Shown piece by piece: positions 23,023 through 41,463 of a DNA stretch of 64,000 nucleotides. Made by a program: the position numbers and the translations under genes. The notes under the pieces were generated by a model. The model had not been told where the DNA came from. It was given only the letters and a program-made list of their open reading frames with translations, and did not search any database. The DNA lies in contig JAYKKM010000437.1 of assembly GCA_035772405.1 (NCBI GenBank), positions 8,836,501-8,900,500 of the forward strand. The letters run 5' to 3'. The DNA is from Chrysogorgia sp. JL179-B06 (lineage: Eukaryota; Cnidaria; Anthozoa; Scleralcyonacea; Chrysogorgiidae). Each line of letters starts with the position of its first letter. Position 1 is the stretch's first letter.

Positions 23023-23191
23023 AGTAGTATAGCAAGTAGGGCTGCGAGCCCAATCGACGTCAAAAGTGAATATAAACACCAAAACATCACCAAATTTTGC
23101 CAAATCGCGATTCGACAAATTTGACGATGTTTTGGTGTTTATATTCACGTTTGACGTCGAATAAGCTCTCAGCCCTACTTGCTATACTACT
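23023..23191. repeat. 169-bp terminal palindrome, left end
   Basis: It starts AGTAGTATAGCAAGTAGGGC and ends with the complement; the centre is TCGCGA at 23105-23110. The arms differ at several positions (for example gcgagcccaatcgacgtc against gacgtcgaataagctctc), so the two orientations can be told apart. Confidence 0.92.
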
Positions 23192-23471
23192 ACAGCGATC
23201 GTTAGTCAATCTAGACACCCCTCGCACGTTTTCTACTAAATTGATGTCAAACACACGCGAGACTAGCGAAACAATACCAAGTTTATACTAAATTTGACAC
23301 CATTTCAGCCACATTTAAAAAATAGAAAGTGTCGTTTCAAAATTCTCACAAATTACATTTAGGAAAAAATAGAAAGTGTCATTTCAACATTTTCGCGTGT
23401 TAAAAAAATAAAATGTGGTACGAGCCCACTCTCACATATTAAAAAATAGAGAGTGTCGTTTCAACATTTTC
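23023..23471 (+). repeat. Polinton left terminal inverted repeat
   Basis: Matches the reverse complement of 41015-41463 over about 449 bp with scattered substitutions. It comprises a 169-bp palindrome, a unique part with ctagacacccctcgcacgtt, and the first subterminal repeat units. Confidence 0.93.
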
Positions 23472-23693
23472 ACAAATTTGTCGAATCGCATTTAAAAAAT
23501 AGAGAGTGTCGTTTCAACATTTTCACAAATTTGTCAAATCACATTTAAAAAAATAGAAAGTGTCGTTTCAACATTTTCACAAATTTGTTAAATCACATTT
23601 TCACAAATTTGTCAAATCACATTTAAAAAATAGAAAGTGTCGTTTCAATATTTTCACAAATTTGTCAAATTACATTTTTACAAATTTGTGTAT
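23311..23693. repeat. Subterminal tandem repeats, left end
   Basis: About seven units of 40-55 bp, each with AAAAAATAGA(A/G)AGTGTCRT followed by TTCAACATTTTCACAAATTTGT. Similar units occur at 41015-41170 on the right. Such arrays could be sites for integrase or replication-protein binding; that role is an inference. Confidence 0.8.
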
Positions 23694-23768
23694 CGTAAAA
23701 GTGTCTCACGCGTGATAAAATTGCCACCTGTTATGCAAATTAGGTTATTGCCACCTGTTAATAATAGA

Positions 23769-24287
23769 TTAGTCCGTTTGTTCACTATTTTCAGCGTTTG
23801 TCGCCTCTTTTCTAAAATGGTGATCGTACACATACTTCGACGTTGTGATTCCTCCCGACAGCAAGCCCAAGAAAGGCACGTACGGCGTCACAATCGCGAC
23901 AATGCTCTCAACGTCTTTCTTTAATAGCGGGTCTTTTTGCAACTCGTCGTTTAGTTCGTCAGGGTTCTCAATAGCGTTCAACCCATCCAGTAGGCTAGCG
24001 AATTTGCTGATTAGCAAGTCAGTGAGAAAAGCGTTTGCGATTTCCATTCTCTTCAACTCATATTGGCGCCATATCTTATCAATAACCTTTGCGGACGCTT
24101 TTTTAATATACGCTTCAGATTGGCTCACCACACCGTCACCAGACAGTCTAATAAGTTCAGCTCTCCTAACGTCAATGTCGTCTTCCACAGTCGAGGCACT
24201 AGCGGCTTGAGTATCCTCAACTAGTTCCTCAATCGTGGGGTTTTCTTCACTTTTGCGTTTCACCATCACGTTATTACTTATACCCAT
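23769..24287 (-). CDS. Polinton small hypothetical protein, 172 aa
   Basis: No family is recognised. The N-terminus holds a short basic block (KRKSEE) followed by an acidic, helical region; an alternative start is the next Met before KRKSEE. Around residues 136-155 there is a hydrophobic stretch (TPYVPFLGLLSGGITT) that could be a membrane segment. The C-terminus is SEQTD, the same five residues that end the polymerase at the other end of the element. It is the last gene of the minus-strand block, 3 nt downstream of the packaging ATPase, which suggests a structural or assembly role. Confidence 0.75.
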   Translation of the reverse strand: MGISNNVMVKRKSEENPTIEELVEDTQAASASTVEDDIDVRRAELIRLSGDGVVSQSEAYIKKASAKVIDKIWRQYELKRMEIANAFLTDLLISKFASLLDGLNAIENPDELNDELQKDPLLKKDVESIVAIVTPYVPFLGLLSGGITTSKYVYDHHFRKEATNAENSEQTD

Positions 24288-24290
24288 ATT

Positions 24291-24890
24291 TTATTGCGGA
24301 ATAACAACTTCGTGACTGTATGGATAGCGCAGTGAGATTTCAAGTCTAGCGTACTTATTATTTTTTAATGCGGTCACAATCGCCGACGATTTTTCTCTGC
24401 TAATGTTTCCAAGGTAATCGTCGATAACGACCTTCATATCACTCCTACTTGGGCAGTAGAAGCAAACGAGCTTACTAATATTTTCTCTGTACGGTTTTGC
24501 GATCGACGTCAGTTGTTGTGTGATGACAATAACGCTCAACATAAAATGTCGCGCACTAAAAGCCAAGTTGACCAATTGACTAGTCCTATTCTTAACGTCC
24601 TGCCCACTTGCACAGTCGTCCAACACAATCAGAGTGTTAGTGCCTTTAAAAACATTTGTTACACACTTGAGAACAGCGTCGACACTGTCTTGCGCGCAGT
24701 CTATCGCTAACACGTCGGGGTCGCGCACATATTTCCAATCTTGGTACGCTTTGTTCCACTCGAAAGTAGGACAAATCAACACAATGTAGTCAAATTTACT
24801 AAAGTACTCAGATTCCAATGTTTCCAGCAAATAATGCGTCTTACCACAAGCTGTCATACCAACAATTAGCATATTAAACGGAGTCTCCAT
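24291..24890 (-). CDS. Packaging ATPase, A32/FtsK-HerA type
   Basis: This 199-aa P-loop ATPase is expected to pump element DNA into preformed capsids. Walker A is at residues 11-18 (GMTACGKT) and Walker B at 87-92 (LIVLDD). A sensor-like ITQQ lies at about residues 140-143. The size and layout are those of Polinton and NCLDV A32-type genome-packaging ATPases. It follows the capsid gene with a 15-nt gap and precedes the 172-aa gene by 3 nt, so the three are likely co-expressed. The start ATG at 24890 is the first in frame. Both Walker motifs are intact. Confidence 0.9.
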   Translation of the reverse strand: METPFNMLIVGMTACGKTHYLLETLESEYFSKFDYIVLICPTFEWNKAYQDWKYVRDPDVLAIDCAQDSVDAVLKCVTNVFKGTNTLIVLDDCASGQDVKNRTSQLVNLAFSARHFMLSVIVITQQLTSIAKPYRENISKLVCFYCPSRSDMKVVIDDYLGNISREKSSAIVTALKNNKYARLEISLRYPYSHEVVIPQ

Positions 24891-24905
24891 TAACTCACGT
24901 TTGAT

Positions 24906-26144
24906 TTAATACTGGATTGACTGCAACCCATTGTTCATGAAGTTGACCAACCCATCACTCATCACAAACACCCTACACATGACATTTGCAGTCGTCGCTT
25001 TCTTAGTGATTTCAAGAAGCACGCCGGATTGTGTGTTTACAATGTTCTTGCCAGTGGCGACATTGCGATTATCTTGAACGCTCCTCAAGTCGATGACCAA
25101 CGCGAAGCCATCTTTATAGAACTTCTGTATGGTCATGAACTGAGCGTGTTCTTCACCCAACCCAAACAATCGTTTCGCTTCTGCATAGAACTTCGACTTT
25201 GGGATGCCTTGTGAGTACACACTATTTGGCACACCTTCAATTGTGACTCTAATATTCTCAATATTTGGGTAAAGAAACTCCTCGCTGTCTGTTCGCACCT
25301 TATTCGTGAATAGCAACACAATTGCCTTCATGCTTTTTCTTGGCAGATTGACGTTTTCATTCACAATGGTTGTACCTTTGTCCCATTCGGTGGTTTTCAT
25401 CAACGTAACGTGCTCATATGACAAACTACGACCACTTGCATAGCCCGACGCTATTTCGTCAGCGAGCTCCTGGTTATCAATCGTTTCGTACTCAAGCTCG
25501 AGGTTCTCCAGAGTGTACCCACCCACAGCGCTACCGGATTGTGCCACCATGATGTCTGCGGCCTTCGGAAGTGTGATCACATACTGCAAGTTGTTGTTCA
25601 TGCTAAAAGGAGCGTACAATCCATGGTCATTCATGATTTTACCAAGCTTAATCCGCTGTTTCGTCCCAATCACACCAAACATTAACGCGTCACTAACTTT
25701 AGCAACGTTCCCACTCGTCGCACCACTGTCATCCTTAGAGACTAGCTTTCTCAAGTTCTCACCACCAATACCATAGTCAATCATTTGGTCTCGCGCAGTA
25801 ACACTTTCCCAAAGGTCGCGATAAACACCAGTGTAATTTTCCCCATTGTTGTCATACACAGTTTCCCCAGCTAGTCTCACAACAAGTTTCTCAACCAACA
25901 ACTTGCTGACATTGTTCAAGAACCAGCTTTTGGCGTTTGCATTCTTAAAGTCGAACACTAGACCCAACGATCCAGGCACCAAACAGCTACTAACCTTGAG
26001 CTTCGGTATATCAATGTAAAGTTCCTCGCCAGGACTGACTTTATTAGGGTTCAACGTGATCACATGCTGTGTTCTCACCCCTTTTATGACACCCATGGTC
26101 GCTCGTCTAAAACCAGGGCTCAACTCTGCCGACGTGGTGTTCAT
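24906..26144 (-). CDS. Major capsid protein candidate
   Basis: This 412-aa protein lies directly upstream of the packaging ATPase, the usual place of the capsid gene in Polintons and adintoviruses. The sequence is beta-rich with no membrane segments or long coiled coils. Internal blocks fit a jelly-roll shell protein (LVVRLAGETVYDNNGENY, LQYVITLPKA, YETIDNQEL, MKAIVLLFTNK). The length suits a compact double jelly-roll (bacteriophage PRD1-like capsid proteins are near 400 aa) and is short for classical Polintons. The call rests on synteny and composition; a structure prediction showing two jelly rolls would confirm it. Confidence 0.7.
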   Translation of the reverse strand: MNTTSAELSPGFRRATMGVIKGVRTQHVITLNPNKVSPGEELYIDIPKLKVSSCLVPGSLGLVFDFKNANAKSWFLNNVSKLLVEKLVVRLAGETVYDNNGENYTGVYRDLWESVTARDQMIDYGIGGENLRKLVSKDDSGATSGNVAKVSDALMFGVIGTKQRIKLGKIMNDHGLYAPFSMNNNLQYVITLPKAADIMVAQSGSAVGGYTLENLELEYETIDNQELADEIASGYASGRSLSYEHVTLMKTTEWDKGTTIVNENVNLPRKSMKAIVLLFTNKVRTDSEEFLYPNIENIRVTIEGVPNSVYSQGIPKSKFYAEAKRLFGLGEEHAQFMTIQKFYKDGFALVIDLRSVQDNRNVATGKNIVNTQSGVLLEITKKATTANVMCRVFVMSDGLVNFMNNGLQSIQY

Positions 26145-26167
26145 ATACCTTTACATATGTTTTATCG

Positions 26168-27511
26168 CTACCGTTTTAGCTTGTAATAATCATAAGCAAA
26201 CCACGCGAGTACCACCGCGAGTACCCAGAGATTTTGAGCCAACCAAGCGAGACCCTTTGCACCCAACGTCAACATATTGTAAACTAAATTAGCCAGCCCA
26301 ACAGCCCATGGACCCATCTTCGTTATCGCGTTCTTAACAGCCTGTGCGAATGACCTCGTGGCAATAGCGCCTTTCATAACAGCAGACCTCCCAGCGATAA
26401 TAATTGTTGTTATAATCCCAGCCATTGAAATTGCTACAGCACTCAACCCAACCATATTTTCTTTAGCCCATTTCTTGAACCTCTGCAACCTGTCAATGTC
26501 GACTTCTTGCTGCTCTCTAACTTCTTCAAGCTCACGCTGTGCCAAGGTTTTGTCTCTGGCTCGCTCGAGTCCTCCCACTCTTTCATACACAGCAGAGTAG
26601 TCTTGCTCTTCGTTACTCGTGAGATCACTTTGGTTATCTTTTATGTCAAGCTCCGCCAATCCCTCATTCACCCCATCTATCGTTTCTTGAAAGTGGTCTG
26701 CCTGCGCTTGAAGTGCGCCATCGTCACCTATTCTCGATTCACGCAACACGCTATCGCTTGGGTTAAGCACACCATTCAGCTCGCGGCTCTCGTCTGGTGT
26801 TAATCCAGGTATGTCGTCGTGTTCCGTGTGTGTGGTGTCCAACAACGGCATACTCCTCACAGTTTTCCCACGGTCTTTCAAGTTGGTTAGGATTTTACGT
26901 ATAAGGGTTTTAAATTGGTTAACTGAGCGTTGCGCGATATTAGCGTCGTTGTACTGCAGAGCACCACCTTCTCCACGTTTGAGAACTATTTGCTTTTTAC
27001 CAAAATCGTTACTATTGAGCCTGGGTCTGAATTGTATGTTGTTACTCTTGTTTGTTGACGTTCTGTGTAGCAGCGTTAACACGTCGGGGTCATGATTGTC
27101 AAGTTTGAATTGCATCCCAGTTTCATTACTAATGAACTTTTCTAAGCTTATCAAAATTTGGTTCTCAGGATTCGATGGCAAATCGTCGACACCAAACGTT
27201 GGGACTTCTGTGTTGGTGCCCCCCCTTATTGTCACCGTTCTACCATCGTCAGTGTCGATAAATGACGTCTCTTTTTTCCCACCTCGCCTTCTAGCTAGCT
27301 CACTTCTTATCTTTTTTGCGTCGTCGCGATAGTTGTCATAATTAACACGAACGTCTCTCGGCATCTCACTCGTGTTGTGCTCGAGGGTTGTCTTGCTGAG
27401 CAACTCATTAGTCTTGGTGAGCTCTCCTTCTAGTTGCTCATCACTCATGTCTTTGTACTTATCGAAGTCCTCCATCTCGATCTTGTCGTAATCTCCCCCA
27501 CCTTTAGCCAT
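26168..27511 (-). CDS. Polinton membrane protein A, 447 aa (paralog of 27570-28520)
   Basis: Family not recognised. The order is an acidic, coiled-coil-prone N-terminus (ELTKTNELLSKTT); a unique middle section at about residues 85-215 (PTFGVDDLPSNPENQIL, LVLKRGEGG-like text); a conserved LLDTT..E..DIPGLTP..SREL block; and a charged helix (REQQEVDIDRLQRFKKWAKE). At the C-terminus are two or three hydrophobic segments (VAISMAGIITTIIIAG, GPWAVGLANLVYNMLTLG, LWVLAVVLAWFAYDYY). The C-terminal third is nearly identical to the neighbouring 316-aa protein. A virion or membrane role is plausible from its position between capsid and integrase genes, but unproven. Confidence 0.8.
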   Translation of the reverse strand: MAKGGGDYDKIEMEDFDKYKDMSDEQLEGELTKTNELLSKTTLEHNTSEMPRDVRVNYDNYRDDAKKIRSELARRRGGKKETSFIDTDDGRTVTIRGGTNTEVPTFGVDDLPSNPENQILISLEKFISNETGMQFKLDNHDPDVLTLLHRTSTNKSNNIQFRPRLNSNDFGKKQIVLKRGEGGALQYNDANIAQRSVNQFKTLIRKILTNLKDRGKTVRSMPLLDTTHTEHDDIPGLTPDESRELNGVLNPSDSVLRESRIGDDGALQAQADHFQETIDGVNEGLAELDIKDNQSDLTSNEEQDYSAVYERVGGLERARDKTLAQRELEEVREQQEVDIDRLQRFKKWAKENMVGLSAVAISMAGIITTIIIAGRSAVMKGAIATRSFAQAVKNAITKMGPWAVGLANLVYNMLTLGAKGLAWLAQNLWVLAVVLAWFAYDYYKLKR

Positions 27512-27517
27512 ATTACA

Positions 27518-27568
27518 CTAGCTCACATTTTGAGCGTCACTTTCCGGCGTCCATAAGTTACGTTTGCT
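27518..27568 (-). pseudogene. Remnant of the integrase 3' end between the duplicated membrane genes
   Basis: The minus strand reads SKRNLWTPESDAQNVS then stop, matching the last 16 codons of the integrase (SKHNSWIPESDIQNVS, stop at 28527). It sits right after the stop of the 316-aa gene, in the same place the real integrase tail occupies before the 316-aa gene start. It is therefore the scar of the tandem duplication that made the two membrane-protein paralogs. Confidence 0.88.
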
Positions 27569-27569
27569 T

Positions 27570-28520
27570 TTAGTTTAAATAATTGTACGCAAGCCACGCG
27601 AATGTCACCGCAAACACCCACAGATTTTGAGCTAACCAAGCGAGGCCCCTCGCGCCTGTCACCAGCGTGTCATAAACTAAGTTCGCCAATCCAACAGCCC
27701 ATGGACCCATCTTCGTTATCGCATTTTTAACAGCCTGTGCAAACGACCTCGTGACCATAGCGCCTCTCATAACATTAGACCTCCCAGCGATAATAATAGT
27801 TGTTATAATTGCAGCTATTGCAATCGCTAAAGCGCTAGACCCAACCATATTTTCTCTAGCCCACTTCTTGAACTTCTGCAATCTGTCAATATCGACTTCC
27901 TGTCGCTCTCTAACTTCTTCCATTTCTCGCTGTTTAATAATTTTGTCTCTAGCCTGTCTAAGTCCAACCATTCTTTCAGCTAGATCGATATACTCTTCGT
28001 TCTCTGCGATCGTGGAGCCCTCCCTATCAAGCTCCGCCATTCTTTCGCTCGCTTCATTTATCAAGTCTTGAAAGTGGTCCGCTTGTATTTGCAATGTGCC
28101 AGTGTCGCCTACTCTCGACTCAGACGTCACACTCTCGCTTGGATTGAGCGCGCTATCCAACTCACGGTTCTCGATTGGTGTTAGCCCAGGTATGTCAACG
28201 TACTCTGCACGTGTGGTGTCTAACAATGGTACACTCCTCGCGACGTCTTCACGATCTCTTACGATGTCATTAACCCGCGTTGTAATATCGTTAAAATCCT
28301 CCTTCATGTGTTGGCGAAATCTTACATCACGTTCACGCCTCAGTCCACTCTCCACTCTAATTAGTCTAATTTTCTCATCGACTGTGACGTTTGGATCGTT
28401 CCGAGATAGTTTGCGATCTTGAGTGGCTTTTTCGAGACTATACTTTAGTTCGTCGTCAGTGACATCTTTGTATTCGTCAGATCTCTCCACCTCAAGGTCG
28501 TCGAAGCCACCCTCAGCCAT
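27570..28520 (-). CDS. Polinton membrane protein B, 316 aa (paralog of 26168-27511)
   Basis: This is the shorter paralog of the 447-aa protein. It has the same acidic N-terminus (YKDVTDDELKYSLEKA), the LLDTTRAEYVDIPGLTP block, the helix with QEVDIDRLQKFKKWARE and the same C-terminal hydrophobic segments (LAIAIAAIITTIIIAG, GPWAVGLANLVYDTLV, LWVFAVTFAWLAYNYL). It lacks the roughly 130-residue middle insert. It starts 6 nt downstream of the integrase stop, so it is likely co-expressed with it. Membrane insertion is well supported; the function is unknown. Confidence 0.8.
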   Translation of the reverse strand: MAEGGFDDLEVERSDEYKDVTDDELKYSLEKATQDRKLSRNDPNVTVDEKIRLIRVESGLRRERDVRFRQHMKEDFNDITTRVNDIVRDREDVARSVPLLDTTRAEYVDIPGLTPIENRELDSALNPSESVTSESRVGDTGTLQIQADHFQDLINEASERMAELDREGSTIAENEEYIDLAERMVGLRQARDKIIKQREMEEVRERQEVDIDRLQKFKKWARENMVGSSALAIAIAAIITTIIIAGRSNVMRGAMVTRSFAQAVKNAITKMGPWAVGLANLVYDTLVTGARGLAWLAQNLWVFAVTFAWLAYNYLN

Positions 28521-28526
28521 ATTACA

Positions 28527-29630
28527 TTAGCTCACATTTTGAATATCGCTTTCTGGTATCCATGAATTATGTTTGCTCTCATAACCCAACCATTTGACCA
28601 GCGCCATCTTCTTCCCTCTGACTTTCTCTCTTTTCAACACCTTTTCAACTCTGTACACATCGTCACCATGTTTCTTATTGACCAGCGATAATTCCTGTTC
28701 ATAAAATTTACCAATAATCTGTTCACCACTTATGTCCTCAATTTCATACACATTTGGATCACCGCGAATAACTTTCACCACTTTAAACAGCTCTTCAGTG
28801 AAGTTGGCTTCATAGCCCTTTGTGAACACGCTCTTGTATTTACTAATTCTCACTGACTCGCCAACTCTAAACTTTGGCAATGGGGTGTCTGCAAAATGAT
28901 GACCAAACAAAGTGGTCCACACTTCACCCTCATTTGACTTATTGACATCCTTCGGCTTCATCATAATGCTTCGATTCACATTGCCATTGTAATTGCTCAT
29001 AAACTGGTCAAGAACGTCAATCCATTTATACGTTCCACGGGTGTAAAAGTACTTCCACATAATACTCTTCAGACTTCTATTAAAACGCTCAACAACAGCG
29101 GCCTTTTTATCACTCTTAGTGCTGAAATATTCAACACCGTGTTTTTTCAGCAAACTTTTCACACCAACGTTATAGAACTCAAGTCCGTCGTCAAATTGCG
29201 CTAATTTAGGCATGGTTCCAAACCGATCTTTAAAGTCAACCAACAATTTTCCAACAGCCTTAGTCATGTTCTTAGCGTCTTTTCTATAAACTGCGATTCC
29301 AAAAGCGTATCTACTCAATATTTCAATGCCTGTCAATATCCAATAATAACCTCCATTCTGTTTTGAGTACTTACTCATGTCCACTAAGTCCATTTGGAGC
29401 TCTTCACCAAGAAATCCGACGAGGGTAGCACGGAATTTATGCCTTCTCACGATAGGTTTGTACCTAGTGTAGGTGTCCTGCGCTGTCAACCATTCTTTCA
29501 CTGTTTTTCTAGTTACTTTCAATCCGTCTCCCAACGCACTTTGATACAGCCTCTCTGCACCACTGTACCCTGTCTTAGGATTATAATAGATGTCTCTCAA
29601 CCCTTGCTCTGTCTCCACACCAAGCTCCAT
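28527..29630 (-). CDS. Retroviral-type (rve/DDE) integrase with C-terminal chromodomain
   Basis: This is the Polinton integrase, expected to join element ends to host DNA. From the ATG at 29630 it has 367 aa. (The open frame runs back to a GTG at 29639, which would overlap the upstream stop.) An N-terminal helical region precedes the catalytic core. Acidic residues are seen at about 81 (QMDLVD), 147/148 (QFDDGLEF) and 181 (VVERFNR), the DDE triad of the rve family. A linker with VGESVRISKYK follows. The last 55 residues form a chromodomain (YRVEKVLKRE, VKWLGYESKHNSWIPESDI), which may guide insertion to marked chromatin. All catalytic residues appear intact. Confidence 0.93.
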   Translation of the reverse strand: MELGVETEQGLRDIYYNPKTGYSGAERLYQSALGDGLKVTRKTVKEWLTAQDTYTRYKPIVRRHKFRATLVGFLGEELQMDLVDMSKYSKQNGGYYWILTGIEILSRYAFGIAVYRKDAKNMTKAVGKLLVDFKDRFGTMPKLAQFDDGLEFYNVGVKSLLKKHGVEYFSTKSDKKAAVVERFNRSLKSIMWKYFYTRGTYKWIDVLDQFMSNYNGNVNRSIMMKPKDVNKSNEGEVWTTLFGHHFADTPLPKFRVGESVRISKYKSVFTKGYEANFTEELFKVVKVIRGDPNVYEIEDISGEQIIGKFYEQELSLVNKKHGDDVYRVEKVLKREKVRGKKMALVKWLGYESKHNSWIPESDIQNVS

Positions 29631-29635: not shown

Positions 29636-30346
29636 TCACACAATATACAGTTCCAATAACACCGCGCCAATTTTGAGATCGTCGTTATTTGGTTTGACGC
29701 GAAACGTCATACTTGAGTAAACACCCTTTTTAATACCCACCTTTGACTCAATGTCTACATGGCGTTGCACTGACCCTTTCAATGACTGTTCGGTAGGTAT
29801 TGGCAACGTTGTGATCACATCGCTACGCTTCCCATCAATACCCACGTCGCTCTCCGTCTCAACGACGTCACACGAAACTTCTATGTACTTCAGACCTTTA
29901 TACATGTCGACCTCGTTCGGGCTAGTGTGCCACTGTGAGTCATTCTGAATCACCTCACCCTTCGCGAAACCAAGTAGAGGCCCAATGGTGTCTAACACAG
30001 CTGAGCTACTAACCTTGACCCTACATTTGCCTGTGGGCACTAGTTTCTCTATCTCAAGATCCACCCTAAGCTCGCTAGACTCGTGTTTCAAGACTTTGAC
30101 CAATGCGTCGAAGCTAAAGTACCCTTCACCCACTTTAATCTTTTTAAAAGAGCCTGCCCTAGAGCTATCCAGCGTGAAGACCTGAATGCTGTCGTCATTT
30201 GTTGTGTTATGATAGTCCCAAAACACAGTGGCTGTCTTGACCACAATGTATGGGTTATCATGTATGACCATCATCGCGTTGTCAAAGGACACAACTTTTT
30301 CCGCACCTTCAATGAACACTGTCAACTTTCGCGTCATGTATAACAT
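29636..30346 (-). CDS. Penton-like minor capsid candidate, 236 aa
   Basis: The sequence is beta-rich and soluble, with no membrane segments. Features are a turn-rich start, a VGEGYFSFDALVKVLKH block, TIGPLLGFAKGE, and a YIEVSCDVVETESDVGIDG segment, ending in alternating hydrophobic strands (IGAVLLELYIV). This arrangement resembles the single-jelly-roll minor capsid (penton) proteins of Polintons, and the gene heads the structural minus-strand block next to integrase. The first Met is at 30346, a second at 30337. It faces the plus-strand block across a short AT-rich divergent promoter. The family call is an inference needing a structure prediction. Confidence 0.55.
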   Translation of the reverse strand: MLYMTRKLTVFIEGAEKVVSFDNAMMVIHDNPYIVVKTATVFWDYHNTTNDDSIQVFTLDSSRAGSFKKIKVGEGYFSFDALVKVLKHESSELRVDLEIEKLVPTGKCRVKVSSSAVLDTIGPLLGFAKGEVIQNDSQWHTSPNEVDMYKGLKYIEVSCDVVETESDVGIDGKRSDVITTLPIPTEQSLKGSVQRHVDIESKVGIKKGVYSSMTFRVKPNNDDLKIGAVLLELYIV

Positions 30347-30407
30347 ACAGTATATTATATGCAGAAAGCCCTTCGTGAGTACTATGGAAAGTACTACAAA
30401 CTCGCGA
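30337..30407. promoter_or_regulatory. Divergent promoter between the two Polinton blocks
   Basis: Minus-strand genes start at 30346 or 30337, and the plus-strand gene at 30359 or at the second Met, 30407. The only shared non-coding DNA is an AT-rich core, tatattatat at 30351-30360, a TATA-like candidate. Using the inner Met on each side would leave about 70 bp for control. Confidence 0.4.
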
Positions 30408-31846
30408 TGGCTAACACATCAAAGGCTACACACAACGCAAAGGCAGACCTCATCAAAAAGTACCCCCACGCTACTTTAAGCAAATTCGAGTTCTATCCAA
30501 ATATTTCACAAGATGGTAAAATCATGAGTGTTGACGTGTATTTCAGAAACAACGACATCCTTAGCACAGACATAACCAGCGCAACCTTCAAAAATAACAA
30601 AAACATGTGGAAGTGGTTACACAATAGCAAGTTCCCAATAATATGGCAAGGTGGTGGGACTATCCAACCATTGCCAAAAGGTCATAAGAACCACTGGGGG
30701 CTTTGGGATGGCTATCCAACAGAAAACGTGTTGAATTATCCAGTGAATAACTTCAAAGTTTTTGTTAACCAGAGTAGCTACTTCATGTCAAAGCTACCAG
30801 TCTTACAAATCACCACGTCAAAGACAAAATCAGAGTGGGATGACAACGAATCTTACTACCGTTGTGTGTTTGCAACGTATTGTGCGAGTTTCTGTTGTGG
30901 GGTGTCATTGCAACATTTATCAGTGTCACAAGAAGTTCACCCCGTGGTCACAAGTGTGATGAGGTTTCATTTGTACTTCACCATTAGAAGACTTCTTAGA
31001 AGAATGGAGGGTGGTGAGACAATGAAATCAATAAGTAGAGAATTCAACGCTTCCGAATTGTATGGTAAGATTTCCAAGATTCCCAAAAAGCATTACTACC
31101 AGAATAAAGTCCTGAGCGATGGCACAACAGGTGAATCCAGAGTCTTCACACTCAACGACATCCACAACGATTACAAACGATACGTCGCACGACTCTCAGA
31201 CGGCTTTACCAACATTGGACTGCAATATCTAAATCAGAGCATAGAGTCCTTTGTGTACTCCACACTTGGTGCGCAAGCGAGAACACGTGTATCAGTCGTT
31301 GGTGGTTCTGCAGGAAGTCTAGAGACCCAACAAGAATTCCGCAAGTTGTTTTCTGACAGTGTTATTCAGTATGACGTGTCGACATGGATTCTCAACATGA
31401 ATAAATCGATTAGAGACACCAACGTTGTTCAAAATCTTGCAGTGTCGCCAAGTACATGGTTGATGCCAAGTAACGTGGTGATTCTCAAGAATAAAATCGC
31501 TGGGTACAACAACTTATTAAAGGTTGCTACAGAGTCCATGAGATTTGGAGTGAACACTAGCTTGAATGCAACAACACCAACAATTACGGCTAAAAAAGTC
31601 CACCAAGAAAATGTGGTGACTCACTCCCTAGTAGTGCCAACGACCGTGAAGAAAAAAGCTCACCAAGAAAGTGTGGTGGCACCAACGACTGTGGCTAAAA
31701 AAGTTTACCAAGAAAATGTGACACCACCTCCTGTGAAAAAAACAGTGGTCACTACCACAAGCGAGTCAGACACGACAACGCTGGTGATAATCTTGGGGTT
31801 CTCAGCAGTCTCTGGCTATCTGTTAACCAAATACACCTTGAAGTAG
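30359..31846 (+). CDS. Polinton large protein with C-terminal membrane anchor, 495 aa
   Basis: Family not recognised. The N-terminal 380 residues are mixed alpha/beta with WKWLHNSKFPIIWQGGG, a Cys-rich patch (CVFATYCASFCCG) and RFHLYFTIRRLLRRMEGG. Residues about 410-465 hold three degenerate repeats built on KK(V/A)(H/Y)QE(N/S)V, separated by Thr/Pro/Val-rich linkers, a stalk-like region. The last 22 residues (LVIILGFSAVSGYLLTKYT) form a single membrane segment with a very short tail. The layout is that of a stalked, C-terminally anchored virion protein. An alternative start, MANTSK at 30407, would free the promoter. The next gene begins 2 nt after the stop, consistent with co-expression with the fibre-like protein. 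Confidence 0.75.
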   Translation: MQKALREYYGKYYKLAMANTSKATHNAKADLIKKYPHATLSKFEFYPNISQDGKIMSVDVYFRNNDILSTDITSATFKNNKNMWKWLHNSKFPIIWQGGGTIQPLPKGHKNHWGLWDGYPTENVLNYPVNNFKVFVNQSSYFMSKLPVLQITTSKTKSEWDDNESYYRCVFATYCASFCCGVSLQHLSVSQEVHPVVTSVMRFHLYFTIRRLLRRMEGGETMKSISREFNASELYGKISKIPKKHYYQNKVLSDGTTGESRVFTLNDIHNDYKRYVARLSDGFTNIGLQYLNQSIESFVYSTLGAQARTRVSVVGGSAGSLETQQEFRKLFSDSVIQYDVSTWILNMNKSIRDTNVVQNLAVSPSTWLMPSNVVILKNKIAGYNNLLKVATESMRFGVNTSLNATTPTITAKKVHQENVVTHSLVVPTTVKKKAHQESVVAPTTVAKKVYQENVTPPPVKKTVVTTTSESDTTTLVIILGFSAVSGYLLTKYTLK

Positions 31847-34186: not shown

Positions 34187-34759
34187 CTAATTTTGTGTGG
34201 AAGGATGATGACGTCTGCACACTGCGCGATATTGCTCAGCACCACCAACGAATGATGGTCCTGGGTTGTATCTCCAATTGAATGGCGCTTCGACAGTCGT
34301 TCCGTAAGTGTCGCGACAAACGGCGCAATACGCTTTTAGAAATGTGATGTCGTCTGCCACTGGGAACAGTGTGTCGAGCTCACCAAGTCTTTTTAAATGC
34401 TCTGTTGTTATGAGACCACAAATAATGACGTGAATGCCAGCTTTAATGTATTCGTGAGTAACTGGGAGTAACCCAGAGTACCAATGGCCTTCGTCAATTC
34501 CGATGACGTCGTAGCCAGCTAGCTCGAAAGAACTCGGGAGGTTGGTGATTAACTTCGCAGGTAAACTGTCTGATCCGACAACAATGGTCTGACGATGTGT
34601 GGAGAACGCGTGGTCAGTTCGTCTGGTGTCACCTGCGTTGTTCATGTAAAGGACTTTGAGCCCTGACTTACTTAACGTGATTAACCTACGAAGAGTCTCT
34701 GTTGTTTTTCCTGCAAACATGGGACCAATCACGATTTCTAGTTTACCGATTTTCTTCAT
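34187..34759 (-). CDS. tk: Thymidine kinase, TK1/type II
   Basis: A 190-aa type II thymidine kinase, phosphorylating thymidine to supply dTMP for DNA synthesis. The P-loop is at residues 12-19 (GPMFAGKT), the Walker B/catalytic glutamate in IDEGHW at 88-93, and the lasso/substrate region near PFNWRYNPG. Cys pairs (CAVC; a later C plus HH) probably bind the structural zinc. The length is normal for the family and all key motifs are intact. Its 5' end overlaps the 3' end of the upstream 244-aa gene by 17 nt on the same strand. TK is common in poxviruses and other large DNA viruses but is not part of the core Polinton set, so it looks like an acquired accessory gene. Confidence 0.93.
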   Translation of the reverse strand: MKKIGKLEIVIGPMFAGKTTETLRRLITLSKSGLKVLYMNNAGDTRRTDHAFSTHRQTIVVGSDSLPAKLITNLPSSFELAGYDVIGIDEGHWYSGLLPVTHEYIKAGIHVIICGLITTEHLKRLGELDTLFPVADDITFLKAYCAVCRDTYGTTVEAPFNWRYNPGPSFVGGAEQYRAVCRRHHPSTQN

Positions 34760-35477
34760 GATTACTATACCTCCAGAGAAATGTTCTCTCCTGTTGCGGC
34801 AACTGTTGCTCGTTGTTGAATATCCGCCGAAGCTCTAAGTTTTTAAGATGAGTCTGCGAGCTCTCATGTCTCAAGCGATGCAGTGGGTCGTTGGTGACCA
34901 CACCGCATGGGTGACAGGTGTACGCGTTTTCGTCTCTCGCAAAGTGCCTGTGGGCTGGCGAGAGTACGTGGTCCCTGATATCGTCCGCGCCTAGTATTTC
35001 CTCACACCCAACCTTGCAAACGTGAACGTCGCGGTTTGCGGCGAGCTCTAGCCACGCTTTGGCTTTGGTTGGGCATGGTTTCCACATAAGGGTCGCTAAG
35101 AACACTTGGAGGAAGTTACCGAGTAATGTGGCGTTGGACTCACTAGGGTTGCTCAAGTAGACATCACTCGCTAACATAAGGTATTTGAATGGTGAGTAAC
35201 ACCACACAGGGATTATGCTAGCTAACATACCAGCAAGCTCGTTGGCTCTTTCCTCTCGAAGATCGATCCAAGCGTCGAGAAGATACCTCGTATGGCGGAT
35301 CTGAGAGCCAAGCCGTTTTGGTGGTCCTTCAGGGTCAGGGTCGAACATTGTGTATGTTGAGAAGTACTCGTTTAAGACGGTAGGTCCAGAGGCGCCTTGT
35401 AGGGTGGGCACACTGATAAAGGCTGTTCTCAACATGTTGGCAATATCTTCTTCGCTGATTTCTCGGGCTTGAGTCAT
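34743..35477 (-). CDS. Hypothetical protein with C-terminal zinc-finger-like motif, 244 aa
   Basis: No family is recognised. The first 170 residues are largely helical (YLLDAWIDLREERANELAG). Then come two Cys/His groups: VCKVGCEEI...HVLSPAHRHF, and CHPCGVVTNDPLHRLRHESSQTH, which has C2H2-like spacing. The C-terminus is polar. It overlaps the thymidine kinase by 17 nt and is transcribed toward it, so the two probably form a unit expressed from the 35478-35608 promoter region. A nucleic-acid-binding role is plausible but unproven. Confidence 0.7.
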   Translation of the reverse strand: MTQAREISEEDIANMLRTAFISVPTLQGASGPTVLNEYFSTYTMFDPDPEGPPKRLGSQIRHTRYLLDAWIDLREERANELAGMLASIIPVWCYSPFKYLMLASDVYLSNPSESNATLLGNFLQVFLATLMWKPCPTKAKAWLELAANRDVHVCKVGCEEILGADDIRDHVLSPAHRHFARDENAYTCHPCGVVTNDPLHRLRHESSQTHLKNLELRRIFNNEQQLPQQERTFLWRYSNHEENR

Positions 35478-35608: not shown

Positions 35609-35953
35609 ATGGTTGAGGACTCACAGACGGCTGTTGAAGCGAAGATCACGGCTGATGTGAAAAGTGTTAAGGTGAAGGACCCAAAGCGCGTCGCTGCTGG
35701 TAAAAAGTTGGCTGAGATATCGAAAGCTGCGAAAGAAAAGAAAATGCGTGAAATGATAGTTAACGAAGAACAGGGTGGTGAGTGGAGCTATGGTTACATT
35801 GTTGGAACACTCGGTGTAATCATCGCTGGTGCTTCACTATGGTACACAATTAGCAATGAAAAAGAGACACAACTGGAGCCTGCGAGCACTGTGGCTAGCG
35901 CGTCAGAAAATCGTAGAACTTGTCGTCCAGCGCTAGACACGTTTGATTCTTGA
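35609..35953 (+). CDS. Small single-pass membrane protein, 114 aa
   Basis: Family not recognised. The N-terminal half is charged and lysine-rich (KVKDPKRVAAGKKLAEISKA), followed by one membrane segment at about residues 62-82 (YIVGTLGVIIAGASLWYTI) and a short tail. It is the first of a run of three small membrane proteins in the plus-strand polymerase block. Confidence 0.7.
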   Translation: MVEDSQTAVEAKITADVKSVKVKDPKRVAAGKKLAEISKAAKEKKMREMIVNEEQGGEWSYGYIVGTLGVIIAGASLWYTISNEKETQLEPASTVASASENRRTCRPALDTFDS

Positions 35954-36213: not shown

Positions 36214-36217
36214 GTTA

Positions 36218-36637
36218 ATGGCGAGTGTTGTGGCTGGAGGGATATTTAATGCAGTGGCTTTTGCAGGCGCTGGCTTTATGTTTTCAAAGTTTAATCATTC
36301 AGGCTATGAAGCTGAGATGAAAAGACATAACCATGCGTTGGAACAGCTAGCCAGTGCGAAAGAAGTGTGGTATGAGAATGAAGTCGCTAAGAAAGATAAG
36401 ATCCAGCGTTTGCGACAACGGCTCTCTGACGCTAATGCTGACATCAATGACACAAACCACGCGTTGGAAGAACTTAGAAGCGTAATGACCATACAGTACA
36501 GCGGACGAGTGTTCACTAACTCCCCGAAGATTGCGGATTACTACCAACCGAGTGCGGAAATGGAGGAATACCAATTGTTGTTTGTTAGCGCGTTAGGTTT
36601 GGGTAGTGGAATAGTAGTGTGGGTACTCACTCGGTAA
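36218..36637 (+). CDS. Membrane protein with central coiled coil, 139 aa
   Basis: An N-terminal hydrophobic segment (VVAGGIFNAVAFAGAGFMF) is followed by a heptad-rich coiled coil at about residues 30-90 (RQRLSDANADINDTNHALEE) and a C-terminal membrane segment (LLFVSALGLGSGIVVWVL). The hairpin layout would place the coiled coil on one side of a membrane. No family name can be given; proteins of this shape recur in such elements. Confidence 0.7.
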   Translation: MASVVAGGIFNAVAFAGAGFMFSKFNHSGYEAEMKRHNHALEQLASAKEVWYENEVAKKDKIQRLRQRLSDANADINDTNHALEELRSVMTIQYSGRVFTNSPKIADYYQPSAEMEEYQLLFVSALGLGSGIVVWVLTR

Positions 36638-36662
36638 AAAATGTTGGAGTAGTATAAGAGTG

Positions 36663-37241
36663 ATGGACAAACTTATGAGGCAGATGAGTTACGGCTGCAC
36701 AATTGACGAAATCGCGAATGAGACGCAAATTGAGTGTGGAGGCACCTTCAGGCTTTACTACTGCTCGGATTGTGACGTTGTGAAAAATGTGACTGACTGT
36801 GGTGGGTACGCATGTCCAAAGTGTGGCGACACCGAATGGGGCTACACTCAGAGTTACAGCGACATGAGACTCACACGACTAAAAAGCGTTCACAAACGGT
36901 CTTGGTGGATGGGGAGGAGACTACGGAACGTTGTGAAGGGTGAGCACCTTGAGTTGATAAAAGAGGACTTCTTGAAAGTTGTCAACGTGTTGCACTCATG
37001 CAATTTGATAAAGGGTAGAAATGTCAGCAGATACGGATACTACATTATTAGGTTGTGCCACAGAAGACGAGTCAAGACACTCAAGAAGGTGTCAGACCTC
37101 AAAGACGGGAAGGTGAAAGACTTGTTCGACGACAATTTGTTTGGGGTGGTGTACCCAAAGCTAGGATGGTGTGAAAGTGGCGACAATTATTACAACGAGT
37201 GGTTTAGGAAAAAAACAAGTGTAGTATATAGAAGCCAATGA
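36663..37241 (+). CDS. Zinc-ribbon protein, possibly VLTF3-like late transcription factor, 192 aa
   Basis: From the ATG at 36663 (a GTG precedes it in frame). Residues about 33-56 form a zinc ribbon with two CxxC pairs (CSDC and CPKCG). A basic/aromatic region follows (RSWWMGRRLRNVVKGEHLEL) and then a helical C-terminus. The ribbon followed by a conserved helical domain recalls poxvirus-type VLTF3 late transcription factors, but the resemblance is weak and only a profile search would settle it. The stop overlaps the polymerase ATG by 4 nt (ATGA), so the two are likely translated from the same transcript. Confidence 0.7.
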   Translation: MDKLMRQMSYGCTIDEIANETQIECGGTFRLYYCSDCDVVKNVTDCGGYACPKCGDTEWGYTQSYSDMRLTRLKSVHKRSWWMGRRLRNVVKGEHLELIKEDFLKVVNVLHSCNLIKGRNVSRYGYYIIRLCHRRRVKTLKKVSDLKDGKVKDLFDDNLFGVVYPKLGWCESGDNYYNEWFRKKTSVVYRSQ

Positions 37242-40200
37242 GTCGGACTGTGAGGAACCCGCTGAAAAAAAGACGGGCGCATAAGACGAGTGCAGCCGTT
37301 GTCAATTCACTAACAGATGAAGCGACCAACGTTCACGGCTTCTTTAGAGACCAAGAAACACAACCTCTAGTCGAAGACCTCGCACCGTCAACGCATCTGT
37401 TGGATCGAGCACTGAGAGGGTTCACAAGGTCCTATGGAGTCGAAGTAATTGACGACAGAGACATCAATCAGGTAAATGGTAGTAGAAGCGCTGTCACTAA
37501 CCTTTTGAGACGTGAACTAGGTGAGACCAACGGGATGAAAGTGGTGGAGACAGTCAAGGTCACTTTTGAGAAAGTTTTAGAACTCGATAAGACCACGTAC
37601 AAAACTGCCTACTTTAACAGCGAGACGTTCGTCGTCATTAACGAGCATGACATCGAGGGTGTTGCCAACCGTGGATCGGAACAGATTTTGACGCGGATAG
37701 CTGGGTGGTTATCTGAGGGGTCTGGATGGACTATCGACAAAATAGACGCGCACTACGTCAATGTCGCTATTTACAGACCTTTGCATGGGAGTAGCTACAT
37801 TGCGTTGCCAAAGGAGCTGCGCAACAGTATGAAGGGTCTGATAAACGTAAATAACGATGATGACAACGAGTGCTTTAGATGGTGTCACCTAGCGCATAAG
37901 TTTCCTGTTGGAAAACACTCCGATAGAACGTCGAAGTACGCTAGGCATGCCAGTGAGTTGAATTATGACGGAATTGACTTCCCAGTCACACTCAAAGACT
38001 ACAACAAGATCGAAAAGGCGAACGATATTAGCATAAATGTTTTTGGGTATGAAAATAAGCAGCCATTCCCTGTGTACGTTTCTAAGGAGGCGTATCCTGA
38101 CCATATGGACCTACTGTTGATAACTAATGACGCGGGCAACAAGCATTATGTGTACATTCGCGATTTTAACAAGTTCATGTACCGTCAGACAAAGTATAAG
38201 GCGAGAAAGCACTTTTGCAGGTATTGTTTGCAGTGTTTCACCCGCGCGGATGTGCTTGAAAGTCATATTGAAGTGTGTTTGGTCATCAATGGGAAGCAAG
38301 CTATTAAAATGCCACAAAAAGGTGCGAAAGTGAAATACGAGAATTTTAGTAGACAGCTAAATGTGCCATTTGTGGTGTACGCAGACTTTGAGGCTATCAC
38401 ACAGAAGGTGCACACAGCGACACCATCAAGCGAGTGTAGCTACACAAGTGCTTACCAGAGGCACGTTGACTGTGGTTATGGGTATAAACTGGTTTGTTGC
38501 TACGATAACGAGTACAGTAAGCCAGTAAAAGTGTATCGCGGTGAAAATGCAGTCAACAAGTTCATTGGGGAGATGCTAGAAATTGTCGAATATTGTAAAG
38601 AGACATCTGAGAGTCATTTTAACAAAGAAATGGTGTTGACTGACGACGATAAGAAGAATTTCGACGAGGCTAAAAGTTGCCATATTTGCAGTGTTGAGTA
38701 CACTAGTGCTGACGTTAGAGTGAGAGACCACTGTCATGTCTCAGGTAAGTACAGAGGGTCTGCGCATCGTCAGTGTAACGTGAACTTTAGATTGACTGAT
38801 AAAATTCCTGTGATCTTCCATAACTTGCGCGGTTACGATAGCCATTTCATTATGCAGGAGATTGGCAAGTTTGGTCAAGACATAAATGTGATACCAAACA
38901 ACATGGAGAAGTACATGGCGTTCATGCTTGGAAAAAACTTAGTATTTTTGGACAGCTTCCAGTTCATGAGTAGTGGTCTAGACAACTTGGTGAAGAACCT
39001 ACCAAGGGACGCTTTCAAATACACGTCAGAAGTGTTTCGTGACGACGGGTTGGCACTTATGACAAGAAAGGGGGTCTATCCTTATGATTATATGGACTCC
39101 TTTGAAAAATTCGACGAAAGCGAGCTACCCTCCAAAAAGGACTTCTACAGCATTCTGAACGATGAGCACATCACGGAGGAAATGCACGAGCGCGCCATCG
39201 ACGTGTGGGACTACTTCGACGTTGAGAGTATGGGTGAGTACCACGACCTGTATTTGAAAAGCGATGTGCTCTTGCTTGCCGACGTTTTTGAGAACTTTAG
39301 AAAGACATGCCATCGCGAGTATAAATTAGACCCTTGCCATTATTTCACATCGCCTGGATTGGCTTGGGACGCCATGCTAAAGATGACTGGAGTAGAGCTC
39401 GAATTATTGTCCGACATCGACATGTTCCAGTTCGTAGAACTAGGTATGCGTGGTGGTGTGAGCTACATATGTAACAGACATGGCGTGGCGAATAATAAGT
39501 ACATGGAAGGGTATGACAAAGAGCGAGAGTCGAAGTATTTGATGTACCTTGATGCCAACAATCTGTATGGATGGGCGATGAGTCAAAGTTTACCTACGGG
39601 TGGCTTCAAGTGGTTGACTGAGAAAGAGATAAAAAAAGTTAATCTATGCGACTATCACGACGGTAGTAAAAAGGGTCTGTTGCTTGAAGTCGACTTGGAA
39701 TACCCAGACCATTTGCATGACCTACACAACGACTACCCGGTGGCTCCTGAGAAGATGGAAATAACTGTCGACATGTTGTCGGAGTACTGCACGAAAATTA
39801 AAAATAAGTTTGATGTGAGTGTTGGCGGTGTGAAGAAGCTGGTGACTAATTTGATGAACAAAAAAAAGTATGTGTGTCACTATAGAAATCTGCAGTTGTA
39901 TGTAGATCTTGGATTGAAAATCAAAAAGGTGCATAGGGTCCTACAGTTTGACCAGTCCAAGTGGTTGGGTAAGTACATTGACTTTAACACAGTCAAAAGA
40001 ACTGCGGCTAAGAACGCTTTTGAGAAGGACTTTTTCAAGTTGATGAACAATAGTGTGTTCGGAAAAACGATGGAGAATTTGAGGAAGCGTGTGGATGTAA
40101 GATTAGTGACCACCGAGAAAAAGTTAGAAAAGCTTGTCTCGAAGCCGACGTTTGTGTCTTGCAAAATATTTAGCGAGAACTTAGTCGCTGTCCACAAAGT

Positions 40201-40849
40201 CAAAGAAACGCTGACATTAAATAGACCCGCATACGTGGGTATGTGCATACTAGACTTGAGCAAAACGCTGATGTACAATTTTCACTATAATTATATTATG
40301 AAAAAGTACTCTAGCGACACCTGTAGATTGCACTTCACTGACACTGACAGTCTGTTGTACTCAATCAAAACTGGCGACGTCTACTCTGACTTTATGATGG
40401 AGCGCGAAAAGTTTGACAATAGCGATTACCCCGCAGACAGCCCATTCGCTTTTAAAGAGAATAAGAAAGTTATTGGGAAGATGAAGGACGAGTGCGCTGG
40501 AACACCAATTATTGAGTTCGTTGGGTTGCGCAGTAAAATGTATAGCTATTTGAAAGAGGGTGGGGGTGGTGGGAAAACCGCTAAAGGCATTAGAAAGAAT
40601 ATAATTAAAAAAGTAATCAGACACGAAGATTACAAAAGTGTGTTACTTGAGCAGAAACAATTGCGACACACAATGAAGACCATTAGAAGTGTCAAGCATC
40701 AGATTGGTAGTTATGAAATTAATAAAGTATCGCTATCCTGCTTCGACGATAAACGATACCTTTTAGAAAATGGTATTGACTCCTATGCATATGGTCACAA
40801 AAACATTGTAGTGAGAGACACCACTGAGAGTAGTGAGCAAACGGACTAA
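37238..40849 (+). CDS. Protein-primed family B DNA polymerase (pPolB), 1203 aa
   Basis: This replicates the element from its termini with a protein primer. An N-terminal extension of about 320 residues holds a zinc-finger-like block (CRYCLQCFTRADVLESHIEVC, about 326-347). The 3'-5' exonuclease motifs are YADFEAI (about 381), HNLRGYDSHF (about 527) and YLKSDVLLLAD (Exo III). Between Exo I and II is a Cys/His module (CHIC...DHCHVSGKYRG...HRQCN, about 480-515) like the endonuclease VII-type insert of this family. Polymerase motif A is YLDANNLYGWAMS (about 770), motif B KLMNNSVFGKTMEN (about 934) and motif C TDTDSLLYS (about 1033). All catalytic residues are intact. The C-terminus is SEQTD, shared with the 172-aa protein. 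Confidence 0.95.
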   Translation: MSRTVRNPLKKRRAHKTSAAVVNSLTDEATNVHGFFRDQETQPLVEDLAPSTHLLDRALRGFTRSYGVEVIDDRDINQVNGSRSAVTNLLRRELGETNGMKVVETVKVTFEKVLELDKTTYKTAYFNSETFVVINEHDIEGVANRGSEQILTRIAGWLSEGSGWTIDKIDAHYVNVAIYRPLHGSSYIALPKELRNSMKGLINVNNDDDNECFRWCHLAHKFPVGKHSDRTSKYARHASELNYDGIDFPVTLKDYNKIEKANDISINVFGYENKQPFPVYVSKEAYPDHMDLLLITNDAGNKHYVYIRDFNKFMYRQTKYKARKHFCRYCLQCFTRADVLESHIEVCLVINGKQAIKMPQKGAKVKYENFSRQLNVPFVVYADFEAITQKVHTATPSSECSYTSAYQRHVDCGYGYKLVCCYDNEYSKPVKVYRGENAVNKFIGEMLEIVEYCKETSESHFNKEMVLTDDDKKNFDEAKSCHICSVEYTSADVRVRDHCHVSGKYRGSAHRQCNVNFRLTDKIPVIFHNLRGYDSHFIMQEIGKFGQDINVIPNNMEKYMAFMLGKNLVFLDSFQFMSSGLDNLVKNLPRDAFKYTSEVFRDDGLALMTRKGVYPYDYMDSFEKFDESELPSKKDFYSILNDEHITEEMHERAIDVWDYFDVESMGEYHDLYLKSDVLLLADVFENFRKTCHREYKLDPCHYFTSPGLAWDAMLKMTGVELELLSDIDMFQFVELGMRGGVSYICNRHGVANNKYMEGYDKERESKYLMYLDANNLYGWAMSQSLPTGGFKWLTEKEIKKVNLCDYHDGSKKGLLLEVDLEYPDHLHDLHNDYPVAPEKMEITVDMLSEYCTKIKNKFDVSVGGVKKLVTNLMNKKKYVCHYRNLQLYVDLGLKIKKVHRVLQFDQSKWLGKYIDFNTVKRTAAKNAFEKDFFKLMNNSVFGKTMENLRKRVDVRLVTTEKKLEKLVSKPTFVSCKIFSENLVAVHKVKETLTLNRPAYVGMCILDLSKTLMYNFHYNYIMKKYSSDTCRLHFTDTDSLLYSIKTGDVYSDFMMEREKFDNSDYPADSPFAFKENKKVIGKMKDECAGTPIIEFVGLRSKMYSYLKEGGGGGKTAKGIRKNIIKKVIRHEDYKSVLLEQKQLRHTMKTIRSVKHQIGSYEINKVSLSCFDDKRYLLENGIDSYAYGHKNIVVRDTTESSEQTD

Positions 40850-40933
40850 TTCGTAGAGTAGTTGGCTATTTGTTAGCTAACGTTGTTAGCCGATCAAAAG
40901 AGCACCATTTTGCTATCCATTTGGATAAACATC

Positions 40934-40965
40934 ACCACTAGAATCAAAATCTAGTGGTTTTTTTT
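40934..40965 (+). terminator. Stem-loop followed by T run after the polymerase gene
   Basis: The stem ACCACTAGA/TCTAGTGGT encloses the loop ATCAAAA and is followed directly by a run of eight Ts (40958-40965). It sits about 90 bp after the polymerase stop. It looks like an intrinsic-type terminator or an RNA 3'-end hairpin. The stem-loop and T run are clear; the function in a eukaryotic host is an inference. Confidence 0.5.
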
Positions 40966-41014
40966 CGCGCGTGAATTGAGAACGCGTCGGTCGTAGTTTG
41001 TTGAACAAAAATGC

Positions 41015-41461
41015 GAAAATGTTGAAATGACACTCTCTATTTTTTAATATGCGAAAGTGGGCTCGCTCCACATTTTATTTTTTTAACACGCGAAAATGTT
41101 GAAACGACACTTTCTATTTTTTCCTAAATGTAATTTGTGAGAATTTTGAAACGACACTCTCTATTTTTTAAATGTGGCTGAAATGGTGTCAAATTTAGTA
41201 TAAATTTGGTATTGTTTCGCTAGTCTCGCGTGTGTTTGACATCAATTTAGTAGAAAACGTGCGAAGGGTGTCTAGATTGACTAACGATCGCTGTAGTAGT
41301 ATAGCAAGTAGGGCTGAGAGCTTATTCGACGTCAAACGTGAATATAAACACCAAAACATCGTCAAATTTGTCGAATCGCGATTTGGCAAAATTTGGTGAT
41401 GTTTTGGTGTTTATATTCACGTTTGACGTCGATTGGGCTCGCAGCCCTACTTGCTATACTA

Positions 41462-41463
<2 letters not shown>
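41015..41463 (-). repeat. Polinton right terminal inverted repeat
   Basis: Reverse complement of 23023-23471 with scattered substitutions (for example cgaagggtgtctag against ctagacacccctcg). It ends AGCCCTACTTGCTATACTACT against a (TA)n tract. Confidence 0.93.
41295..41463. repeat. 169-bp terminal palindrome, right end
   Basis: Same length and arms as the left palindrome. Read from the outer end, it shows the same arm order (gcgagcccaatcgacgtc outside, the diverged arm inside), so both ends are in the same isomer. Confidence 0.92.

What the first reader, a model, noticed from the sequence alone, without database searches (positions are those of the whole stretch)
23023..41463. Complete, apparently intact Polinton/adintovirus-like element inside a TA microsatellite
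All recognisable core genes are uninterrupted and the roughly 449-bp TIRs differ at only a few per cent of positions. This suggests recent insertion or ongoing activity as a virus-like element. Both termini abut (TA)n, so the target was a TA repeat and the target-site duplication is masked.
Basis: partly seen in the sequence, partly recalled or inferred. Interest (0 to 1): 0.85.

Follow-up and report, generated by a model that had tools for sequence, protein, structure and literature searches.

The report
Intact Polinton in a large family
This is a complete virus-like jumping element of the Polinton kind, one of well over a hundred related copies in this genome, and the copies look like a virus that kept its shell genes working and swapped its vertex-protein genes between insertions.

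Summary
The element is real and the coordinates are exact: 23023-41463, 18,441 bp, 459-bp TIRs, (AGT)2//(ACT)2 ends and 16 open reading frames, none broken. It is a Polinton/Maverick by integrase with chromodomain, A32-type ATPase, double-jelly-roll capsid protein, penton-like protein, TIRs and (in siblings) 6-bp duplications; PolB is putative and no Ulp1-type protease was recognised. It also carries a thymidine kinase and a BroN/VRR-NUC gene. The genome holds 262 exact copies of the 29-nt terminus and at least 101 open capsid genes at 98-100% identity. In 12 of 12 paired siblings there is a perfect 6-bp duplication at a different, non-TA site, so the (TA)n target is incidental (2 of 28 elements). 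TIR divergence does not mark this copy as recent: 10/449, against 0/449 in 9 of 12 siblings. Against the window, five backbone genes differ at synonymous sites (dS 0.08-0.42) but little in protein (dN 0.002-0.039), while penton, u447 and u244 alleles are swapped between copies. The best reading is repeated integration from a recombining, virion-forming lineage rather than one passive transposon. Each TIR begins with a conserved 169-nt palindrome. Host unidentified; the named capsid relatives listed are octocoral.

The parts
23023..23481 (+). left TIR (459 bp)
41005..41463 (-). right TIR (459 bp)
23023..23191 (+). terminal 169-nt imperfect palindrome (75-nt arms, 19-nt loop)
   Evidence: I20; DNA fold of 171 nt -69.9 kcal/mol, z -19
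41295..41463 (-). the same palindrome at the right end
   Evidence: I17
23017..23022 (+). TATATA, left flank: masked 6-bp TSD candidate
   Evidence: 6-bp TSD in 12 of 12 sibling pairs
41464..41469 (+). TATATA, right flank: masked 6-bp TSD candidate
23769..24287 (-). u172, function unknown
   Evidence: no Pfam or PHROGs match
24291..24890 (-). A32-type packaging ATPase (PF04665, 2.7e-16)
24906..26144 (-). major capsid protein, double jelly roll (412 aa)
26168..27511 (-). u447, hydrophobic C-terminal part (by eye), variable between copies; candidate minor capsid protein (inferred)
27570..28520 (-). u316b, tandem paralogue of u447
   Evidence: 76% over 685 bp
28527..29630 (-). rve integrase with C-terminal chromodomain
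   Evidence: (Chromo 1.4e-10, rve 5.2e-6)
29636..30346 (-). penton-like / minor capsid protein
30359..31846 (+). u495, unknown
31849..32799 (+). u316, weak tail-fibre-family match (5.1e-4)
33184..33951 (+). BroN + VRR_NUC + C2H2 protein
34187..34759 (-). thymidine kinase (PF00265, 1.4e-27)
34743..35477 (-). u244, allelic in three classes among the copies compared
35609..35953 (+). u114
36218..36637 (+). u139
36663..37241 (+). u192, two CxxC pairs (by eye)
37238..40849 (+). putative PolB (1203 aa) with an endonuclease VII-like zinc region; the PolB call rests on motifs read by eye (recalled), not on a profile match

Best explanation
It is an integrated copy of a Polinton/Maverick-kind virus-like element. 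Shown here: element limits, TIRs, ends, intact ORFs, a DJR capsid model and a penton-like model, integrase, ATPase, thymidine kinase, and 6-bp TSDs in siblings. Inferred: the linear DNA is replicated by its own protein-primed PolB from the TIR ends, whose conserved terminal palindrome probably serves as an origin or recognition site. The DNA is packaged by the A32-type ATPase into a capsid of the MCP and penton. After entering a germ-line cell it is joined to host DNA by the rve integrase at nearly arbitrary sites, with a 6-bp duplication. The many copies in this genome are most simply repeated integrations from a lineage that keeps forming particles and recombines, exchanging penton, u447 and u244 alleles. 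The (TA)n at this site is just where this copy landed.
Against: No particle, transcript or read data. No Ulp1-type protease was recognised. PolB has no PolB profile match. Seven of the nine siblings examined show a stop, frame break or insertion in at least one gene, five of them with identical TIRs (C142, C193, C263, C321, C9), so 'intact' and 'young' do not go together; assembly errors were not tested. Purifying selection could also act on a long-lived element complemented in trans for some genes.
Confidence: 0.75

Rival explanations
1. Purely intragenomic transposon: copies multiply inside the germ line with no virions; the capsid genes are kept because the copies are young or by hitch-hiking.
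For: Many closely related copies in one genome; a nested copy inside another (C10); no particle evidence.
Against: MCP, INT, ATPase, TK and PolB proteins are conserved (dN 0.002-0.039) while synonymous sites differ (dS 0.08-0.42) against the window, and TIR pairs of most of those copies are identical: the lineages diverged under protein-level selection before inserting. The penton itself is variable, so this argument is weaker for it.
Confidence: 0.2
2. Site-specific insertion into (TA)n microsatellites, with a masked TSD.
For: This copy and the C23 copy abut (TA)n: 2 of 28 elements (for 16 of the 28 only one flank was read).
Against: 12 of 12 sibling pairs with both flanks read lie at non-TA sites with 12 different TSDs. 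Pure TA tracts of 20 bp or more make up 280 of 49,028 flank bases of the other 39 TIR hits (C23 included) and 724 of 45,569 bases of the window outside the element, so about 0.16-0.44 of 28 is expected; 2 is at most a mild excess.
Confidence: 0.03
3. Terminal palindrome used as in parvoviruses: hairpin-primed replication with flip/flop resolution.
For: 169-nt palindrome at each end; reverse-strand hits of query positions 1 to about 170 at 40 of 40 scored TIRs.
Against: The outer arm has the same variant in 40 of 40 TIRs; no flipped form was seen, though these 40 are the best matches and the whole-genome test did not complete.
Confidence: 0.07
4. Assembly chimera at the TA tracts.
For: Long (TA)n on both sides; reads not available.
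Against: The 18.4-kb TIR-to-TIR length is the common one: 36 of 47 pairs formed from the 100 places listed of 262 are 17-19.5 kb; gene order is the same in the fetched parts of siblings, apart from one or two u447-type genes and a second penton in some. A misjoin outside the TIRs cannot be excluded here.
Confidence: 0.05

Closest known systems
Polintons/Mavericks (class Polintoviricetes)
   Same: rve integrase, A32-like ATPase, DJR MCP, penton-like protein, long TIRs, 6-bp TSD, (AGT)2//(ACT)2 ends
   Different: no Ulp1-type protease recognised; thymidine kinase; terminal palindrome (whether other Polintons have one was not tested); MCP/INT/penton block leftward, PolB block rightward, accessory genes between
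Cnidarian-type Polintons (Paramuricea clavata capsid proteins)
   Same: MCP 57-66% identical over 93% or more of the length in the listed hits
   Different: no annotated element was available to compare gene content
Adintoviruses
   Same: integrase with chromodomain (defining feature as given in PMC11071296, passages read)
   Different: MCP relation seen only by fold, to one adintovirus entry (named penton there) at 8% identity; the OTU-like PolB domain was not tested
Vertebrate Mavericks
   Same: end motif, TSD, size range, purifying-selection argument (PMC8097293, passages read)
   Different: intact elements reach at most 38 per genome there; here at least 101 open MCP genes, which is a count of one gene and not of whole intact elements

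Membership tests
Polinton/Maverick | rve-type integrase | tested here: met
   rve 5.2e-6 (27.1 bits, below Pfam's 32.6 cut-off), Chromo 1.4e-10; transposase family 5.7e-9
Polinton/Maverick | protein-primed PolB | tested here: inconclusive
   1203-aa ORF, no PolB profile match; motifs recognised by eye only (recalled)
Polinton/Maverick | packaging ATPase | tested here: met
   Pox_A32 2.7e-16
Polinton/Maverick | double-jelly-roll major capsid protein | tested here: met
Polinton/Maverick | penton / minor capsid protein | tested here: met
Polinton/Maverick | Ulp1/adenain-type cysteine protease | tested here: inconclusive
   no match; an H/C motif in u495 is not kept in copy C193; no positive control was run
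Polinton/Maverick | long TIRs | tested here: met
Polinton/Maverick | 6-bp target-site duplication | tested here: met
   12 of 12 sibling pairs; at the window copy itself only compatible (TATATA in TA)
Polinton/Maverick | (AGT)2//(ACT)2 ends | tested here: met
Adintovirus | integrase with C-terminal chromodomain | tested here: met
Adintovirus | hexon recognisable by BLASTp to adintovirus hexons | not testable with these tools
   I held no reference hexons; fold match only
Adintovirus | PolB with N-terminal OTU-like domain | not tested
Parvovirus-like hairpin telomere | flip/flop isomers of the terminal palindrome | tested here: inconclusive
   40 of 40 unflipped, a biased set; whole-genome search not answered

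The most novel reading that the evidence does not exclude
A large, still mobilisable endogenous virus population in one animal: hundreds of Polinton copies act as a shared gene pool in which a conserved backbone is recombined with a set of divergent penton and minor-capsid cassettes (serotype-like), with replication started from a conserved terminal hairpin.
Probability: 0.3. Interest if true: 0.8.

Novelty: new variant of a known kind. Interest (0 to 1): 0.55.

Why it matters
Particles of vertebrate Mavericks had not been observed as of PMC8097293 (2021; passages read), and whether such elements spread as transposons or as viruses is argued from sequence. A genome with many closely related copies, identical TIR pairs, protein-level conservation of backbone genes and shuffled penton alleles gives a tractable natural case: insertion polymorphism, transcription and particles could be looked for directly in the host.

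Tried and rejected
TA-tract targeting: rejected as a rule. Protease in u495 (H-W ... C pattern): rejected because the residues are not kept in copy C193. Longer copies as cargo-bearing variants (48, 31, 26, 21 kb): insertions inside genes account for the ones read; in the 48-kb copy one of them is a second Polinton and about 13 kb between u244 and u114 was not identified. Relatives in IMG/VR: none for MCP, TK, MCP alignment or PolB (short peptide patterns, so weak). Relatives of PolB in phage records: none. PDB sequence searches: nothing useful. TIR dating: if 10/898 were neutral change since insertion, about 7 stops would be expected in 15.9 kb of coding sequence and none is seen; either part of the TIR difference is older or clustered (6 of 10 differences lie in positions 359-436), or it is chance; the window's left and right TIRs both have C142 as nearest relative elsewhere, at 3 and 7 differences, so the right TIR's changes are not shared with a listed sibling. 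Host identification was not achieved. A paper search for Polinton with microsatellite gave 48 papers, 20 listed, listing only; nothing was taken from it.

Full report
Observation. The element runs from 23023 to 41463 (18,441 bp). Its ends are AGTAGTATAGC... and ...GCTATACTACT, each against a TA tract: TRF gives 22858-23022 and 41464-41526. The TIR is 459 bp inside the element, and left and right differ at 10 of the first 449 positions. Sixteen ORFs of 114-1,203 aa, 5,297 codons, are open. Composition shifts at the ends (GC 0.40-0.47 from 24 to 41 kb, 0.33-0.38 in the adjoining kilobases).

Thymidine kinase. PF00265 1.4e-27. The closest database protein is 82-83% identical, three more are at 56-57%, and the rest of those listed that cover most of the length are at 40% or less (120 of 303 listed). 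In a 49-row tree the window and these four form one clade (100/99) on a long stem, so this is not a recent capture from any named TK in the set; animal host TKs were not in it by name, and the tree has long branches. TK is in nine of nine other copies examined. A paper search for Polinton and thymidine kinase gave five papers (listing seen; passages of one, PMC11071296, read without its single TK mention being shown); I make no claim that it is unreported.

Family. The window lies in G000, 780,986,399 bases in 522 contigs. A TIR search scored 40 of 2,837 candidates, 40 of 40 full-length at 98-100%: 28 elements, 12 with both ends. All 12 pairs have a perfect 6-bp TSD at different sites, none in TA; the C23 copy is the only other one on (TA)n, and for 16 of the 28, the window included, only one end was in this set. 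The exact 29-nt terminus occurs 262 times (132 + 130; reversed control 0). Of the 100 places listed, 47 pairs form, median 18,534 bp, 36 of 47 between 17 and 19.5 kb. An MCP search scored 101 of 4,057 candidates; 101 of 101 are open at 98-100%, a top slice that favours intact genes. Of the 44 of these on contigs C1-C216, 8 lie next to an exact terminus, which would give a very rough total near 700 copies; the two samples are not independent, so only 'hundreds' should be taken from it.

Age. Sibling TIR pairs differ at 0/449 in 9 of 12, and 1, 1 and 3 in the rest; the window at 10/449. The siblings were chosen by similarity to the window's left TIR, and pairs with both ends in the top 40 favour similar ends. 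Even so, the window copy is not the young end of the family. Its ORFs are nevertheless all open, while tblastn shows stops, frame breaks or insertions in at least one gene of C10A, C142, C193, C263, C321, C475 and C9 (7 of 9; no stop seen in the fetched parts of C100 and C10B). Base errors in the assembly were not tested.

Selection and mosaicism. Against the window, backbone genes differ mainly at synonymous sites: MCP dS 0.17-0.28 / dN 0.007-0.015; INT 0.27-0.42 / 0.025-0.032; TK 0.16-0.26 / 0.022-0.039 (9 of 9 copies each); PolB 0.27-0.35 / 0.018-0.029 (8 of 9, 915-1,203 codons); ATPase 0.08-0.19 / 0.002-0.023 (7 of 9, 80-199 codons). Penton dS 0.24-1.32 / dN 0.03-0.30 in 8 of 9; the ninth value (C9, 1.71 / 0.42) is set aside because its broken penton was probably mixed there with the copy's second penton gene. 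u447 0.53-0.95 / 0.25-0.38 (paralogues may be mixed where a copy has two), u244 0.13-0.60 / 0.04-0.25; u495 is divergent in C193 (1.79 / 0.49) and moderately in C263 (0.36 / 0.11). Four of nine copies carry a second penton-like gene (33-36% to the window's). Pairwise DNA identities disagree between genes: C10A/C10B MCP 99.8, penton 100.0, INT 93.3; C10A/C9 INT 99.2, penton 75.6; C100/C9 penton 99.7, u447 84.5; window/C475 penton 93.5, u244 87.7; window/C193 u244 94.1, penton 79.0. Such discordance is the mark of recombination between lineages; no formal recombination test was run. Purifying selection on virion genes was used for vertebrate Mavericks as evidence for reinfection (PMC8097293, passages read); the same argument applies here, with simple NG86 pair counts rather than tree models, and less strongly for the variable penton.

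Ends. The first 169 nt of each TIR form an imperfect palindrome (75-nt arms, 19-nt loop), with reverse-strand hits at 40 of 40 scored TIRs. The outer arm carries the same variant in 40 of 40 (the script's position label misses one, L026, whose coordinates are those of the outer arm); the inner arm has small variants in four (L024, L031, L032, L034). I take the palindrome as an origin or a recognition structure for integrase or terminal protein (inference). A search for Polinton with 'terminal inverted repeat' and 'palindrom' gave 18 papers, listing only; one paper found by another search and read in passages says that bidnavirus ITRs do not form parvovirus-like hairpins (PMC4061559).

Verdict. 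A known kind of element by class, unusual by scale and by its mosaic population structure.

Noticed in passing
21735-21924 and 42435-42622: The host flanks on either side of the element carry a 190-bp inverted repeat (98%) with TA tracts, so the insertion lies inside an older repeat-rich composite.
   Followed up: partly
21855-21995 and 41521-42504: Left flank has a near-perfect 70+70 nt palindrome; the right flank has the same 70-nt arms separated by about 840 bp, like a small TIR element and its internally deleted form.
   Followed up: partly
22003-22850: 276-bp tandem repeat, 3.1 copies, with three tRNA-like sequences in register.
   Followed up: no
23770-23800 and 40830-40849: u172 and PolB end in the same residues (SEQTD) because a short inverted match lies inside both ends.
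   Followed up: no
33184-33951: Fusion of a BroN/anti-repressor-like N-terminus, a VRR nuclease and a C2H2 finger.
   Followed up: no
L041-L045 (C10:717243-765649): One Polinton nested inside the u192 gene of another; the inner copy must be the younger.
   Followed up: partly
C100, C142, C263, C9 copies: A second penton-like gene, 92-97% alike in DNA among these four and 33-36% in protein to the window's penton.
   Followed up: partly
23432-23689: Tandem array of 54/77-bp units related to the inner TIR; other copies show repeated weaker hits of the same TIR part just inside their TIRs.
   Followed up: no
54109-54679: Minisatellite with a 21-bp unit, about 27 copies.
   Followed up: no
6820-8057 and 9356-11481: Reverse-transcriptase-like ORFs, probably LINE remnants (recognised by eye).
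   Followed up: no
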